From assembly GCA_013151645.1 (NCBI GenBank), contig JAADHU010000057.1:1-64000 (forward strand): a stretch of 64,000 nucleotides of DNA. The letters run 5' to 3'. A program made the position numbers and the translations under genes. Position 1 is the first letter of the stretch, and the number at the start of each line of letters is the position of its first letter. Shown here piece by piece: positions 52,733 through 58,425 of the stretch. The notes beneath the pieces were generated by a model, which was not told the origin of the DNA, made no database searches, and was given only the letters and a program-made list of their open reading frames with translations. The stretch comes from Gammaproteobacteria bacterium (GTDB lineage: Bacteria; Pseudomonadota; Gammaproteobacteria; Steroidobacterales; Woeseiaceae).

Positions 52733-53896
52733 TCAGATAACGATTTCCTGAGGCGGTTCCCGCAAGTTATATCGGGATGACATGACGCGGCCATAAGCGC
52801 CCGCGTTGGCGATGACAATAACGTCATTTTCGTGGCTCACCGGCATTGGACGATCGACTCCAAAGGTATCGCCCGTCTCGCAAATCAGGCCAACAATGTT
52901 GGCCGTCTCGGCGAGCGGATCGCCGTAACGCGTCAAATTGACGATCTCGTGATACGCGTCGTAGAGCGCCGGACGAATCAACGCATTCATCCCGGTGCCA
53001 ACGCCGATGTAGCGCCGGTTTCCTTTGCCCTTCAACTGTGTCACGTGCGTCAGGAGAATGCCGGCTTCGGCAACCAGGTATCGTCCGGGTTCCAACCAGA
53101 ACTCATAGCCTGGTAATCGGGCTTTAACCAGCGCAAGCGCCTGGTCCATTGCCTGCAGATCGAACGCCTGCTCATCGGCTCGACCCGGGACGCCGAGACC
53201 GCCACCAAGATCCAGGACCGACACATTCTCGAATCGGGCCGCGATCCGTGCCAATTCGGTGGCAACCTGCCCCCAGCTGTCGGGTTCGGGGATACCACTG
53301 CCGCTATGTGCATGGATACCCACGACGTCGGCACCGGCTTTCTCCACGAGGGAAACAAGCTCATCGACTTCAAACCGCGGGATGCCAAACTTGGAACGAT
53401 CGCCGGCCGTTTTCACATGCTCATGGTGGCCGTGCCCCTGACCCGGGTCCACGCGCAGGAATATTTTTTGTCCTGCAAAAATCTCCGGCCACGCCTGCAG
53501 CGGATAGAGGTTGTCGAGCGTCACCTGAATGCCCAGATCCCGGCTCCATTGATAATCCTCGCGTGGCGCGAAATTCGGCGTAAACAATATTCGGGATTTG
53601 TCCAGATCAGGGACGACACGCAGCAGATGTTCAACTTCGCCCGGTGAAACGCATTCGAAATCCACCTTGAGGGAAGCCAGCAGACGCAGCAGATGCGGAT
53701 TAAAATTTGCCTTCATTGCATACAGCACACGATCGATCGATTGCAGATCTCGCAATCGCTGCACCGACTGCCGCACCGTTTCCAGCTCGTAGACGTAAGC
53801 ATTCAGCTGTCCGTCCGCGATTTTCAGGATTTCATCTCGTCGTCTAAGCCACCATGCCGGTTGCGGCATGCTGGGATGATGTTCTTGTCGCGTCAT
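52733..53896 (-). CDS. lysA: Diaminopimelate decarboxylase
   Basis: 387 residues from the ATG at 53896. It is a fold-type III PLP decarboxylase making lysine from meso-diaminopimelate. The PLP Lys is in YAMKANFNP, with FECVSPGE, the HAHSGSGI and DLGGGLGVPG phosphate-binding loops, LEPGRYLVAEAG and the second-subunit ICETGDTFG (Cys and Asp). The sequence resembles, from memory, the LysA half of the fused LysC-LysA enzyme of Xanthomonas, but no kinase domain is attached. A terminator and short ORF precede it. It converges with leuB across 6 bp. Confidence 0.93.
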   Translation of the reverse strand: MTRQEHHPSMPQPAWWLRRRDEILKIADGQLNAYVYELETVRQSVQRLRDLQSIDRVLYAMKANFNPHLLRLLASLKVDFECVSPGEVEHLLRVVPDLDKSRILFTPNFAPREDYQWSRDLGIQVTLDNLYPLQAWPEIFAGQKIFLRVDPGQGHGHHEHVKTAGDRSKFGIPRFEVDELVSLVEKAGADVVGIHAHSGSGIPEPDSWGQVATELARIAARFENVSVLDLGGGLGVPGRADEQAFDLQAMDQALALVKARLPGYEFWLEPGRYLVAEAGILLTHVTQLKGKGNRRYIGVGTGMNALIRPALYDAYHEIVNLTRYGDPLAETANIVGLICETGDTFGVDRPMPVSHENDVIVIANAGAYGRVMSSRYNLREPPQEIVI

Positions 53897-53929: not shown

Positions 53930-53963
53930 AAAAAAAAACCCGCAGAAGTTATTCATGCGGGTT
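53930..53963 (-). terminator. Intrinsic terminator/attenuator upstream of lysA
   Basis: The stem AACCCGCA/TGCGGGTT (53937-53944 with 53956-53963, 11-nt loop) runs on the minus strand into an uninterrupted U run, encoded by A at 53930-53938. It sits between a 39-codon ORF and the lysA ATG, only 34 nt before the latter, so it can either end the small transcript or attenuate lysA. Confidence 0.85.
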
Positions 53964-53990
53964 CGATGACAGTAGCCGGTTTCTTTTTAT

Positions 53991-54110
53991 TTAGCCGGTT
54001 TCACCGCCAGTCTCACCCACGCTCCTCTGGCGCACCATTTGTTTTGTCTGTTGTTCGACATCGAAGTCTTCGATAGCCGGGCACACGACGCAGGTGGATT
54101 TCAAATACAT
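53991..54110 (-). CDS. 39-residue leaderless small protein or leader peptide before lysA
   Basis: ATG at 54110 to TAA at 53991. The sequence starts MYLKSTCVVCPAIEDF, has a CxxC pair (Cys7/Cys10) and ends in a GETG-GETG repeat. It contains only two Lys codons, so a simple lysine-codon attenuator is not obvious. The promoter at 54117-54145 places transcription start at or next to the A of the ATG, hence a leaderless mRNA. An 11-bp direct repeat (TAGCCGGTTTC on the plus strand at 53973-53983 and 53992-54002) spans the stop codon. The terminator follows 28 bp later. I do not recognise the peptide with certainty. Confidence 0.5.
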   Translation of the reverse strand: MYLKSTCVVCPAIEDFDVEQQTKQMVRQRSVGETGGETG

Positions 54111-54116
54111 CCGTGC

Positions 54117-54145
54117 AGTAAAGCGAACCCGGCGGGCCAGGTCAA
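54117..54145 (-). promoter_or_regulatory. Sigma-70 promoter of the 39-codon ORF and lysA
   Basis: On the minus strand TTGACC (54140-54145), a 17-bp spacer and TTTACT (54117-54122). The start point 7 nt beyond the -10 box is 54110, the A of the small ORF's ATG. The -35 box lies 4 bp after the ilvD stop. Confidence 0.7.
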
Positions 54146-54149
54146 GTTT

Positions 54150-55835
54150 TTAGTCCCAGGGTGGAGCAATCGTAATCGCGCCCTCCGACGCTGACGTCAC
54201 CTCAGCCCGGTATTTTGCAAGGACTCCGCGCCGAACGCTGGAGCCCGGTCGAACCCATGCTTTGCGCCGCGCCTCCATCGTCGTTGCATCGACCTGCAAA
54301 TCGATGCGCCTCGTTTCCGCATCGATGGTAATGCCATCACCGTCCTCAATCAGGGCGATGGGTCCGCCGACGGCCGCCTCGGGGGAAACGTGACCCACGA
54401 CGAAGCCGTGACTGCCGCCCGAAAACCGACCGTCCGTAATCAGCGCAACGTCAGCACCCAGGCCCTTGCCGATAATCGCCCCCGTCGGACTCAGCATCTC
54501 TCGCATGCCCGGCCCGCCCTTTGGCCCTTCGTAACGAATGACGACGACATCACCTTTTGTTACTTCATCGTTCAAAATGGCCTTGAGTGCCAGTTCCTCG
54601 GAATGAAAGACCCGCGCCGTGCCCTCAAAACGCAGGCCTTCTTTGCCGGTAATTTTGGCCACCGCACCATCCGGCGCTACGTCGCCATGGAGGATAACCA
54701 GATGGCTGTCCGGCTTGATGGGATCCTCGAACGGACGCACTATTTCCTGCCCGGCCGGATAATCTTCGACATCCGCGAGATTTTCAGCCACCGACTTCCC
54801 GGTCACCGTCAAACAATCCCCATGCAACAGCCCGTGATCCAGAAGCCGTTTCATCAGCGGCCGAATGCCGCCAATCGCAATCAGTTCCGACATAAGGTAA
54901 CGACCACTTGGCCGGACATCCGCCAGCAAGGGCACGCGTTTGCCGACACGCGAAAAATCATCCAGCGAAAGCGCCACCTCGGCCTCATTAGCCATCGCAA
55001 TCAGGTGCAAAACAGCGTTCGTCGAGCCGCCAAGCGCGATGACAACCGTGATGGCGTTTTCGAACGCCTCAAGGGTCATGATATCCCTGGGTTTGATGTC
55101 CTTGCGGATCAATTCGACGACCGCCGCGCCGGCGCGAACGCAATCGTCGACTTTGCTCTGCGAAACGGCCTCTTGTGCGGAGCTGTTCGCGAGACTTAAC
55201 CCTAACGCTTCAATCGCCGAGGCCATGGTGTTGGCGGTATACATACCACCGCAGGCACCGGGTCCCGGTATCGCCGTACGTTCTATTTCCGTCAGTTGCT
55301 CGGCACTGATTTTATTGCTTGATATCGCGCCGACGGCCTCGAATACAGAAACAATGTCGCGGCGTTTTGCGCCGGGCTGGATCGTGCCACCGTATACGAA
55401 CACGGACGGTCGATTCAGACGCGCCATTGCCATGACGCATGCCGGCATGTTCTTGTCGCAACCGCCGATGGTCACCAAACCGTCGAATCCCTGCGCCGCC
55501 GTGACGGCTTCTATCGAGTCCGCAATTATTTCCCGGGACACGAGGGAGTAGCGCATGCCGGGCGTCCCCATCGAAATACCGTCCGACACCGTAATCGTAT
55601 TGAAGATAATCGCCTTGCCACCCGCCTTGTCCGCTCCGGACGCCGCCTGTCTCGCCAACTCATCCAGGTGCATATTGCACGGCGTGATCATGCTCCACGT
55701 TGATGCTATACCGACCTGTGGTCGAGCAAAATCCGCATCCTCAAAACCTGTCGCACGCAACATAGCGCGGCTTGGCGCGTGCTCGGCGCCGTCTGTCACG
55801 ACACGTGAATATCGTCGCAGCTCTTTTTCCGTCAT
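54150..55835 (-). CDS. ilvD: Dihydroxy-acid dehydratase
   Basis: About 561 residues from the ATG at 55835 ([10 protein letters not shown]); an in-frame ATG at 55859 has no ribosome-binding site. It is an Fe-S dehydratase of Ile/Val synthesis with the ligands in [17 protein letters not shown] and [13 protein letters not shown], then the C-terminal [10 protein letters not shown] and [20 protein letters not shown] segments. It lies apart from, and opposite to, the ilvC-leuB operon, so it is not under that attenuator. Confidence 0.95.
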
Positions 55836-55889
55836 GGTGTTCGCTCTTGAATGGCCCATCGCTTTGCAACAGGCCCCGACAATGGAATC

Positions 55890-58298
55890 CTATTGAGCAG
55901 CGGTATCGTCATCCCGAATCATAACCGTAATGCGCCGGTTTATGTTCGCTTCGTTGTCGGCTGTCGCTGAAACAATTTCGAGCAGGAAGGTTTCATCGAT
56001 TTCGTCCAACGAGTCCTGCACCAGCGGTATGAGCAATCGGGCGCTGCGCTGATTGGCGGCGAACGAGATCGTCGTCGTTGCAGGTGCGAAATAGTCCTCG
56101 CCTTCGGTCGCACTGATGTCCCGCACAATATAGTCGACCTCGAAGGCCTGCGAATCCGGATGCAGGCGAAGTACGTCAATCTGCACGGCCGGATCGCCCT
56201 CACGCACCGACATCCGATCCAGCCAGAACGCAACGGTATTCGGCGAAAGACCGGCCTCGATCGTTCGACGATCATCGTCTTCGATGGTGAAATTGATAAT
56301 GGCCAGCTCCGAATTCGGGTTATCTGCAACGTGAACCAGCAGGGTCACCTTTCGGTCCGCTTCACTGACGGTGTCCGATGCCAGGCTGATTGTCGTCTGC
56401 GCCGTTGGCTGGCCGGCGGCGAAATCGACCACACCACTATTAGCGATCACGTACTTGCCCGTACTTCCCGGTGAACGGTTGCCGGAAAAACTCACTTCCT
56501 CAATGCGTAACGAAAGCGGTACTCCGATACCCGCTGTCCGATGAAAACTGATTCTTGCGGGCACCGAATCTTCGCGCAAGATGACGCCCACTTCCACCGG
56601 CTGCATCCCGGCCAGGCTTAGCGTGACTTCATGCGTTGCCGGTTCAAGGACGACCACAGGCGTCGCTCCTGCATCTACGTCAGTCGATGTCACCCGCAAC
56701 GCACCCGGATCGTAATCGCGCAACCCATCAACGCCCGCATCGCGCTCGACGTTATTCGCCGGGACCGTCAATGCAGGATCGCTGACGCCGGCAGGCGTAT
56801 CATCGACGCTGACACCGCTCGTGCCAGTCTCCTTACCGGACTCCGACACCGCCGACAATTCAGTCGCTGCGACGTCAGAGAGCGGATTATTCACTGTATC
56901 CGGAGCCGTGATGCCGACAGCGTCACCTCGTATCCACGGAAAATACTCGTCCAGGAACGTCGTTTTAATGCCAACGTATGCGAGCACCATCAGCAACGCG
57001 ATTACGACAACGCGTCGCAACCATCGACCTTCCGGTCGCGGGTCCGGACTTTCGACCAGCGGTTCGCCGGCACTGACCTGAGCCGGCGGCTCGACATCGA
57101 CCGATTGCAGACCGTCGATGAATTCCTGCGGCGAGGAATAGCGCGCGACGCGCGAATACGCCAGGCCTTTTTTCAGCGCTTTCCATTGCGAATCACTCAG
57201 CCCGTCCGGGCGTTGCGGTTCCATTCCGGATTCCGCCGCTTCGGCCGCATTGCGCGGGCCGAACACACGAAAGCCGGCAATCAACCGGTACATGAGACAT
57301 GCCAGCGAAAAGACATCGTCGGCGGGCACCGGTTCGTCACCCGTGAGCACCTGCATACTGGAATAGGCCGGCGTCACGGCACCGAGGACCGCAGGGTTGA
57401 ACTTCGACAGCGTATCACTCTGTTTTTGGCGAATTCGGGCGACGCCAAAATCGAACAGTTTGACCTGACCCGAGGGTAATATCATCACGTTGGCCGGTTT
57501 GACATCGGCATGCACGACACCGCATCGGTGCGCATAGTCAAGCGCACGACCCAACTGATTGACGATATCCAGCGCGGTCGCCAGATCAATATTCTTGCTC
57601 TTCCCTTCATCGAGTATATTCGCCAGCGAGCGCCCTTCGAGCCACTCCATGACGATGAAATAAAGTTCATCGTCCCGATCGAGATCGAGGAAACGAACGA
57701 TGTTCGGATGGGACAGACACCGCCCCTTCGCCGCTTCTTGTTGCAGTGCGCGCAGTGCGTTGCCATTACGGGACAATTTTCGCGAAAGAACTTTGATGGC
57801 CACCCAGGGTTCAGCGGCATCCGCTTCAGCCAGCCGGCGATCCAGTGCCCGGTAGACCACGCCCATGCTGCCACCTGACACGCGCTCTTTTAACAAGAAC
57901 CGATCCCGCAGTACGGAACCGACCTGCAGGTGATCTTCGGGCTGATCAGAGTCCTCTGCCGAAGCATCGATTACGTCCGTTTCGCCGAAATCGCCTGCGT
58001 ACGGGCTATTGCTCTGATCCAGACCCGGCAGCGTATCAATGTCATCGGAGACGATTCGATCAAGCATCGTTCGAACCAGTTGAAAAGACTCTTTCCTCAA
58101 TTCACCGCTTTCAAGCCGCGAGAGCAGGATACTGCGGATATCCGCTTCGCTGTCCTGACGCTCTTTGAGCAATTCCCTGATGGTGCGATGAACATCCTGC
58201 AGCAAGGATGCGTCATCCATGGTCTGCTTGAGCTGTCCCTCGAAATCCGCAAGCTGTTCCGAATACGATGGCTCTGAGTTGTCCTGCCGGGAAGTCAT
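55890..58298 (-). CDS. Transmembrane Ser/Thr protein kinase with Calx-beta-like domain
   Basis: About 802 residues from the ATG at 58298. An N-terminal helical region (about 1-130) precedes a Hanks-type kinase (about 135-400): VSGGSMGVVY loop, VAIKVLSR Lys, VVHADVKPANVM catalytic loop (Asp) and LFDFGVARI (DFG). One membrane helix follows (about 425-445, VVVIALLMVLAYVGI), then a Pro/Thr/Asp-rich linker and a periplasmic part ending in a Calx-beta-like module (VREGD, YIVRDISATEGEDYFAPATTTISF, DEIDETFLLEI) that may bind calcium. The HRD motif is HAD. It is probably a receptor-like kinase. Confidence 0.85.
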   Translation of the reverse strand: MTSRQDNSEPSYSEQLADFEGQLKQTMDDASLLQDVHRTIRELLKERQDSEADIRSILLSRLESGELRKESFQLVRTMLDRIVSDDIDTLPGLDQSNSPYAGDFGETDVIDASAEDSDQPEDHLQVGSVLRDRFLLKERVSGGSMGVVYRALDRRLAEADAAEPWVAIKVLSRKLSRNGNALRALQQEAAKGRCLSHPNIVRFLDLDRDDELYFIVMEWLEGRSLANILDEGKSKNIDLATALDIVNQLGRALDYAHRCGVVHADVKPANVMILPSGQVKLFDFGVARIRQKQSDTLSKFNPAVLGAVTPAYSSMQVLTGDEPVPADDVFSLACLMYRLIAGFRVFGPRNAAEAAESGMEPQRPDGLSDSQWKALKKGLAYSRVARYSSPQEFIDGLQSVDVEPPAQVSAGEPLVESPDPRPEGRWLRRVVVIALLMVLAYVGIKTTFLDEYFPWIRGDAVGITAPDTVNNPLSDVAATELSAVSESGKETGTSGVSVDDTPAGVSDPALTVPANNVERDAGVDGLRDYDPGALRVTSTDVDAGATPVVVLEPATHEVTLSLAGMQPVEVGVILREDSVPARISFHRTAGIGVPLSLRIEEVSFSGNRSPGSTGKYVIANSGVVDFAAGQPTAQTTISLASDTVSEADRKVTLLVHVADNPNSELAIINFTIEDDDRRTIEAGLSPNTVAFWLDRMSVREGDPAVQIDVLRLHPDSQAFEVDYIVRDISATEGEDYFAPATTTISFAANQRSARLLIPLVQDSLDEIDETFLLEIVSATADNEANINRRITVMIRDDDTAAQ

Positions 58299-58425
58299 CC
58301 GTTCAATAGTGTCCAAAGTTCCGGTTAACGCCAACCGATAAGTCGCGACAGCGCTCTGAGCCGCCCATTTTAGCGTTAAATCCGCAACGCACGGTGGGAA
58401 CTGGTCAGCATAATTGGCGGTCTGC

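What the first reader, a model, noticed from the sequence alone, without database searches (positions are those of the whole stretch)
53930..54145. Unannotated leaderless 39-codon ORF and terminator before lysA
A clear -35/-10 pair places the start point on the ATG of a 39-codon ORF with a CxxC motif and a GETG-GETG tail. It is followed by an 11-bp repeat across its stop codon and a strong terminator only 34 nt before lysA. It is either an unusual small protein or a leader that controls lysA by a means other than lysine codons, for example a Cys/redox or stop-codon signal.
Basis: partly seen in the sequence, partly recalled or inferred. Interest (0 to 1): 0.65.

Follow-up and report, generated by a model that had tools for sequence, protein, structure and literature searches.

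The report
Lysine-gene leader RNA of marine bacteria
Just before a lysine-synthesis gene in a common family of marine sediment bacteria lies a previously undescribed, strongly conserved, folded RNA with its own promoter, a tiny translated reading frame that starts at the very first base, and a terminator, which together look like a switch that decides whether the lysine gene is transcribed.

Summary
The promoter, the ATG at the predicted +1, the 39-codon ORF, the 11-bp repeat and the terminator 34 nt before lysA are all present. They belong to a ~180-nt structured RNA that matches no Rfam family. A covariance model finds it at 100-176 bits in about 80 Woeseiaceae genomes and nowhere else sampled (best outside hit 35 bits, a chance terminator). 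The fold is backed by covariation: 94.5% of cells paired against 37-53% when slid. The 11-bp repeat is the two arms of one hairpin. Lysine genes follow the RNA in 75/82 cases (65 aspartate kinase-LysA fusions, 10 lysA), usually 10-60 nt beyond the terminator, so they must be read through it. One arm of the RNA can pair with the terminator's first arm (antiterminator, 98% of cells). The ORF is real as a translated leader: 63 of 64 sequences with NTG at +1 keep the frame to the same stop, against 3 of 17 without. But amino acids are not under protein-level selection, and at least five lineages lost the ORF while keeping the RNA. Best reading: a leaderless-uORF transcription attenuator of (aspartate kinase-)lysA, possibly also a trans-acting sRNA. 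Effector unknown; the lysine riboswitch was not found in the relatives searched.

The parts
54117..54145 (-). promoter: TTGACC - 17 nt - TTTACT
   Evidence: Read directly; same architecture, spacer exactly 17, in 81/82 homologous loci.
53930..54110 (-). structured leader RNA, about 180 nt, from predicted +1 (A of ATG) to the end of the T run
   Evidence: CM R1 match 53930-54097, 144.3 bits; 82 homologues, 94.5% of cells paired vs 37-53% when slid.
53991..54110 (-). 39-codon leaderless ORF including the stop (TAA 53993-53991)
   Evidence: NTG exactly 6 nt after -10 in 64/81; 63 of these keep the frame to the stop, 3/17 without NTG; no protein-level selection.
54088..54096 (-). P1 5' strand (segment A)
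   Evidence: Pairs with 54014-54022; 97% of cells paired, 5 of 9 pairs with changes on both sides.
54014..54022 (-). P1 3' strand (segment B); 54015-54020 is also the antiterminator 5' strand
54080..54084 (-). P1b 5' strand GUGCC
   Evidence: Pairs with 54032-54036; 100% of cells paired.
54032..54036 (-). P1b 3' strand GGUGC
54057..54077 (-). P2 hairpin, sequence-variable
   Evidence: 8 of 8 pairs covary.
54023..54031 (-). P3 GCC-AGA-GGA (GCCAGAGG nearly invariant)
   Evidence: 98% of cells paired; conserved also where the ORF is lost.
53965..54012 (-).
   Evidence: 10 of 12 pairs with changes on both sides; window fold.
53930..53964 (-). intrinsic terminator; 5' arm 53957-53963 (segment D), 3' arm 53937-53943 (segment E), T run 53930-53938
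   Evidence: 98.9% of cells paired.
53957..53962 (-). antiterminator 3' strand ACCCGC, partner of 54015-54020
   Evidence: 98.0% of cells paired vs 19-48% when slid; co-transcriptional balance.
52736..53896 (-). lysA, controlled gene (homologue of the C-terminal half of the aspartate kinase-DAP decarboxylase fusion)
   Evidence: PRK08961 positions 483-859, 532.9 bits; TIGR01048 293.5 bits.
54150..55859 (-). ilvD, upstream neighbour (constant in 79/82 loci)
   Evidence: TIGR00110 738.8 bits; synteny.

Best explanation
A Woeseiaceae-specific transcription attenuator (leader RNA) for the lysine gene that follows it. SHOWN BY SEQUENCE: a constitutive-looking promoter starts a ~180-nt RNA just after ilvD; the RNA folds into P1/P1b/P2/P3, P4 and a terminator. 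The lysine gene starts a few tens of nt beyond that terminator. Segment B (P1 3' strand) can pair either with A (P1 5' strand) or with D (terminator 5' arm). INFERRED: when A:B forms, the terminator D:E forms and the lysine gene is off. When A is kept busy, B:D forms first and RNA polymerase reads through into (aspartate kinase-)lysA. INFERRED, less sure: what keeps A and B apart is a ribosome on the ORF that begins at the first base of the RNA (leaderless translation), slowed in its A-rich middle (codons 19-23, often AAA, lysine). The peptide itself does not matter. In lineages that lost the ORF the conserved core (GCGCCAGAGG plus A-rich linker) must work without translation. A second, trans-acting role of the terminated RNA, as for rnTrpL of Sinorhizobium, is not excluded.
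For: Downstream gene is AK-LysA (65) or LysA (10) in 75/82, first start codon usually 10-60 nt past the T run. Other families of the order have ilvD and AK-lysA as a tight operon without the RNA, so promoter, RNA and terminator evolved between two genes of an operon. Antiterminator: 98% of cells pair; before the second terminator arm is made the ensemble is balanced (P1 0.33, antiterminator 0.56) and moves to 0.77 when A is masked, with 75/82 above 0.5. ORF: 63/64 vs 3/17 start-frame-stop coupling; 49/49 open against about 35 expected from column composition; still p=0.0014 on 20 cluster representatives. In G005 the relocated AK-lysA carries its own leader of the same plan: TTGACG-N17-TTTACT-6 nt-ATG, 32-codon ORF with EKKFGKRK, P1-like and P4-like helices, antiterminator, terminator 30 nt before AK-lysA. 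Lysine riboswitch RF00168: no match in any of 60 relatives, positive in 4 of 14 controls.
Against: Seven loci in several separate branches keep the RNA at full score with no lysine gene next to it. The ORF is lost in at least five lineages that mostly keep the lysine gene. Lysine codons are few in the window (2) and nearly absent from the linker of its closest relative; the A-rich linker is kept also where no ORF exists. At equilibrium the terminator wins even with A masked. Only one antiterminator pair covaries. No transcript or regulation data.
Confidence: 0.58

Rival explanations
1. Stand-alone or dual-function small RNA: the promoter-to-terminator unit makes an abundant ~180-nt sRNA acting in trans; readthrough into lysA is incidental.
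For: Own conserved promoter and terminator. Retained at 134-167 bits in seven genomes without a lysine gene next to it and in three without ilvD. Conserved core outlives the ORF in at least five lineages. In G005 the ilvD-side copy lost the ORF and keeps the fold while AK-lysA took a separate leader.
Against: Lysine gene 10-60 nt behind the terminator in 75/82, with no room for another promoter; conserved antiterminator pairing with the terminator arm. No target known.
Confidence: 0.22
2. New riboswitch class: P1-P1b-P2-P3 is a metabolite aptamer (lysine or another aspartate-family compound) whose P1 competes with the antiterminator.
For: Variable peripheral helix P2 with nearly invariant junction letters (GCGCCAGAGG, A-rich linker) and P1 in balance with the antiterminator; core kept without ORF; no lysine riboswitch found in the relatives searched.
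Against: Start-frame-stop coupling of the ORF is unexplained; the G005 AK-lysA leader lacks the core; core retained where no lysine gene follows.
Confidence: 0.15
3. Functional small protein of 39 residues with a redox CxxC.
For: Start, frame and stop kept together.
Against: Synonymous changes 0.79 of expectation; second codon positions the most variable; CxxC only in this genus; ORF lost in at least five lineages.
Confidence: 0.05

Closest known systems
rnTrpL / peTrpL trp attenuator of Sinorhizobium meliloti (PMC7298713)
   Same: 5' end of the RNA is the ATG of the leader ORF; terminator before a biosynthetic gene; terminated RNA reported to act in trans.
   Different: Trp codons and a 14-aa ORF there; here 39 codons, no codon run, large conserved core, different gene and bacterial class.
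Polycysteine leaderless-ORF attenuators of mycobacteria (Canestrari et al. 2020, as cited in PMC9031893)
   Same: Leaderless short ORF upstream of operon genes proposed to attenuate.
   Different: Contiguous Cys codons there; here no codon run, plus a covarying RNA fold.
Lysine riboswitch, RF00168
   Same: Position before lysine genes with a terminator; shares the short string AGAGGUGCG with L-box sequences as I recall them (from memory, not tested).
   Different: No RF00168 match in the window or in 60 relatives.
Thr/Leu/Trp/His leader attenuators of Gammaproteobacteria (RF00506, RF00512, RF00513, RF00514)
   Same: A:B / B:D / D:E architecture with a translated leader.
   Different: Scores far below gathering (14.3 and 11.7 bits for RF00513 and RF00512); no run of cognate codons; leaderless.

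Membership tests
Ribosome-mediated amino-acid attenuator (trp-leader type) | short translated ORF at the start of the leader | tested here: met
   63/64 coupling of start, frame and stop; 49/49 open vs about 35 expected. Translation inferred from selection, not measured.
Ribosome-mediated amino-acid attenuator (trp-leader type) | run of codons for the product amino acid | tested here: not met
   Lys per ORF mostly 2-3, scattered; 2 in the window. Only the G005 relocated leader is Lys-rich.
Ribosome-mediated amino-acid attenuator (trp-leader type) | mutually exclusive terminator and antiterminator | tested here: met
   (computed, not experimental).
Ribosome-mediated amino-acid attenuator (trp-leader type) | readthrough rises when the cognate tRNA is uncharged | not testable with these tools
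   Needs an experiment.
Lysine riboswitch RF00168 | covariance-model match above gathering score | tested here: not met
   control genomes positive.
Leaderless-ORF attenuator | start codon at the transcription start | tested here: inconclusive
   NTG at -10 +6 in 64/81 predicts it; 5' end not mapped.
Small regulatory RNA gene | own promoter, own terminator, conserved fold | tested here: met
Small regulatory RNA gene | stable transcript and targets | not testable with these tools
   No expression data held.
Small protein gene | purifying selection on amino acids | tested here: not met
   Synonymous/expected 0.79 in frame; codon position 3 most conserved.
Any Rfam 15 family | match at gathering score | tested here: not met
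   Only a tRNA in the window; best sub-threshold 16.2 bits vs gathering 50.

The most novel reading that the evidence does not exclude
A new RNA class that is three things at once: a metabolite- or translation-sensing switch for the lysine gene, a leaderless translated leader ORF woven through the sensing core, and, once terminated, a trans-acting sRNA that survives when the lysine gene is lost.
Probability: 0.2. Interest if true: 0.8.

Novelty: new variant of a known kind. Interest (0 to 1): 0.62.

Why it matters
Woeseiaceae are abundant in marine sediments (general knowledge, not checked here) and no regulatory RNA of theirs came up in the papers searched. This is a family-wide RNA with strong covariation support that matches no Rfam family, placed where other bacteria use the lysine riboswitch, which was not found in this order's sampled genomes. 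It gives a clear case of a leader ORF under selection to be translated but not for its peptide, and a natural experiment (G005, and the lineages that lost the ORF, the lysine gene or ilvD) that separates the attenuator part from the conserved RNA core.

Tried and rejected
First thought of a pure non-coding sRNA with a chance ORF: rejected after the start-frame-stop coupling. First thought that the downstream gene varies: wrong, because tblastn with lysA alone missed the aspartate kinase half of the fusion. Small protein: rejected. Rfam families, lysine riboswitch included: rejected. Relatives outside the family: the three best were inspected and are terminators with chance partial matches. Pattern hits outside Woeseiaceae: those tested have no model match above 15 bits. 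Equilibrium folding with A masked did not show the switch; folding of the transcript before the second terminator arm did. Lysine-codon sensing: Lys codons sit in an A-rich linker that is kept also without ORF, so not decided. Second weak R1 hits in other genomes (L232-L236, L240) were fetched, score 20.7-25.9 bits and look like chance or terminators; only G005 C97 lies before AK-lysA. trans targets were not searched: without conservation across genomes the result would be noise.

Full report
WHAT IS THERE. On the minus strand between ilvD (54150-55859) and lysA (52736-53896) the sequence reads TTGACC-17 nt-TTTACT-6 nt-ATG, a 39-codon ORF ending TAA at 53993-53991, an 11-bp direct repeat and a terminator whose T run ends at 53930, 34 nt before the lysA ATG. 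All points of the observation hold.

IT IS A CONSERVED RNA. A search with the DNA found the element downstream of ilvD throughout the same family. An alignment of 25 loci shows invariant stretches (GCGCCAGAGG, A-rich linker) and variable but pairing stretches. A named structure gave 92% paired cells on 24 sequences against 35-51% when slid; on 82 loci 94.5% against 37-53%, with 27 of 47 pairs changed on both sides, all eight pairs of P2 covarying. A covariance model hits about 75 family genomes at 100-176 bits in the order sample, one strong place per genome; outside the family nothing exceeds 28 bits in the order or 35.4 bits in the class sample, and the three best of those are terminators with a poor remainder. 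Names from an exact-pattern scan show the family is Woeseiaceae; the pattern hits in other taxa that were tested have no strong model match. Rfam has no such family.

THE NEIGHBOURS. ilvD lies upstream in 79/82 loci; a lysine gene lies downstream in 75/82, 65 times the aspartate kinase-DAP decarboxylase fusion and 10 times lysA alone, with the start codon usually 10-60 nt past the RNA. No separate promoter fits between, so the lysine gene must be read through the terminator. In other families of the order ilvD runs straight into AK-lysA with no RNA, as it does in G007 and in the reduced genus g4 of the same family. The RNA, its promoter and its terminator thus lie inside what is elsewhere one operon. 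RF00168, the lysine riboswitch, has no match in 60 relatives while four of 14 control genomes are positive.

THE SWITCH. The P1 3' strand (54015-54020) is complementary to the terminator 5' arm (53957-53962): 98.0% of cells over 82 loci, 19-48% when slid, one pair with changes on both sides. With the full transcript the terminator wins. When transcription has made only the first terminator arm, P1 and antiterminator are near balance (0.33 and 0.56), and masking the P1 5' strand moves 75 of 82 sequences to the antiterminator. This is computed, not measured.

THE ORF. NTG lies exactly 6 nt after -10 in 64 of 81 loci. One search scored 60 of these as having the frame intact to the same stop in the P4 loop; three more (L105, L110, L116) were misread by the core pattern, and the ORFs printed there show 39 intact codons, giving 63 of 64. 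Of the 17 loci without NTG only 3 have an intact frame; a fourth, L031, has an ATG shifted downstream (my reading of the sequence). Among ungapped sequences 49/49 with NTG are open against about 35 expected from column composition, and the coupling holds on 20 cluster representatives (p=0.0014). Frame +1 is open in 3/61 and +2 in 20/61. Yet synonymous changes are 0.79 of expectation and third codon positions are the most conserved. So the frame is kept for being translated, not for its peptide. On a tree of ilvD fragments the ORF was lost in at least five places (genus g12 with L041; L035/L037; L107/L108; L111; L114) while the fold stayed.

NATURAL EXPERIMENTS. In G005, AK-lysA sits elsewhere and has its own leader of the same plan: promoter, leaderless 32-codon ORF with EKKFGKRK, P1-like and P4-like helices, antiterminator and terminator. 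It scores only 20.9 bits with R1, so homology is likely from position and plan but not proven. The RNA left beside ilvD in G005 lost the ORF and kept the fold (149.5 bits). Seven loci in several branches have no lysine gene next to the RNA and still score 134-167 bits. In three g10 genomes of this kind only a distant LysA-like protein (31-33% identity) was found, and in two more no LysA above the cut-off; these assemblies are 78-93% complete.

MECHANISM. I commit to a transcription attenuator of the lysine gene with a leaderless leader ORF (0.58). Shown by sequence: promoter, fold, alternatives, readthrough geometry, ORF selection. Inferred: that a ribosome on the ORF keeps P1 from forming and so allows B:D and readthrough. 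Not decided: the signal. Lys codons occur in the A-rich linker in many species but are few in the window, and the linker is conserved without the ORF. The lines against are the retention of the RNA without the lysine gene and of the core without the ORF; both point to a further role, for which rnTrpL of Sinorhizobium, an attenuator RNA that starts with the ATG of its leader ORF and acts in trans (PMC7298713), is the nearest precedent. Leaderless Cys-codon attenuators in mycobacteria (Canestrari et al. 2020, as cited in PMC9031893) show that leaderless ORFs can attenuate.

NOVELTY. The kind (attenuator leader) is known; the family, the leaderless 39-codon ORF woven through a large conserved core, and the host group are new as far as Rfam 15 and the papers searched show. 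The papers library is open-access only.

Noticed in passing
window 52736-53896 (-): The 'lysA' matches the C-terminal half of the aspartate kinase-DAP decarboxylase fusion far better (532.9 bits) than TIGR01048 (293.5, below cut-off); in this genus and in g12 the kinase half is gone, elsewhere in the family the fusion is intact.
   Followed up: partly
window 55890-58334 (-): 814-aa Ser/Thr protein kinase with a long repeat-like C-terminal part beside ilvD; in three genomes that lack ilvD a protein with a similar C-terminal end abuts the RNA.
   Followed up: no
L231 (G005 C97 16500-18000), about 17175-16957 (-): Separate leader before a relocated AK-lysA: same promoter geometry, leaderless Lys-rich ORF, terminator; a good second subject.
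   Followed up: partly
L213-L215 (genus g4): Reduced AT-rich Woeseiaceae genomes have ilvD followed at once by lysA, without the RNA.
   Followed up: no
L039: About 54 nt inserted between the promoter and the RNA core.
   Followed up: no
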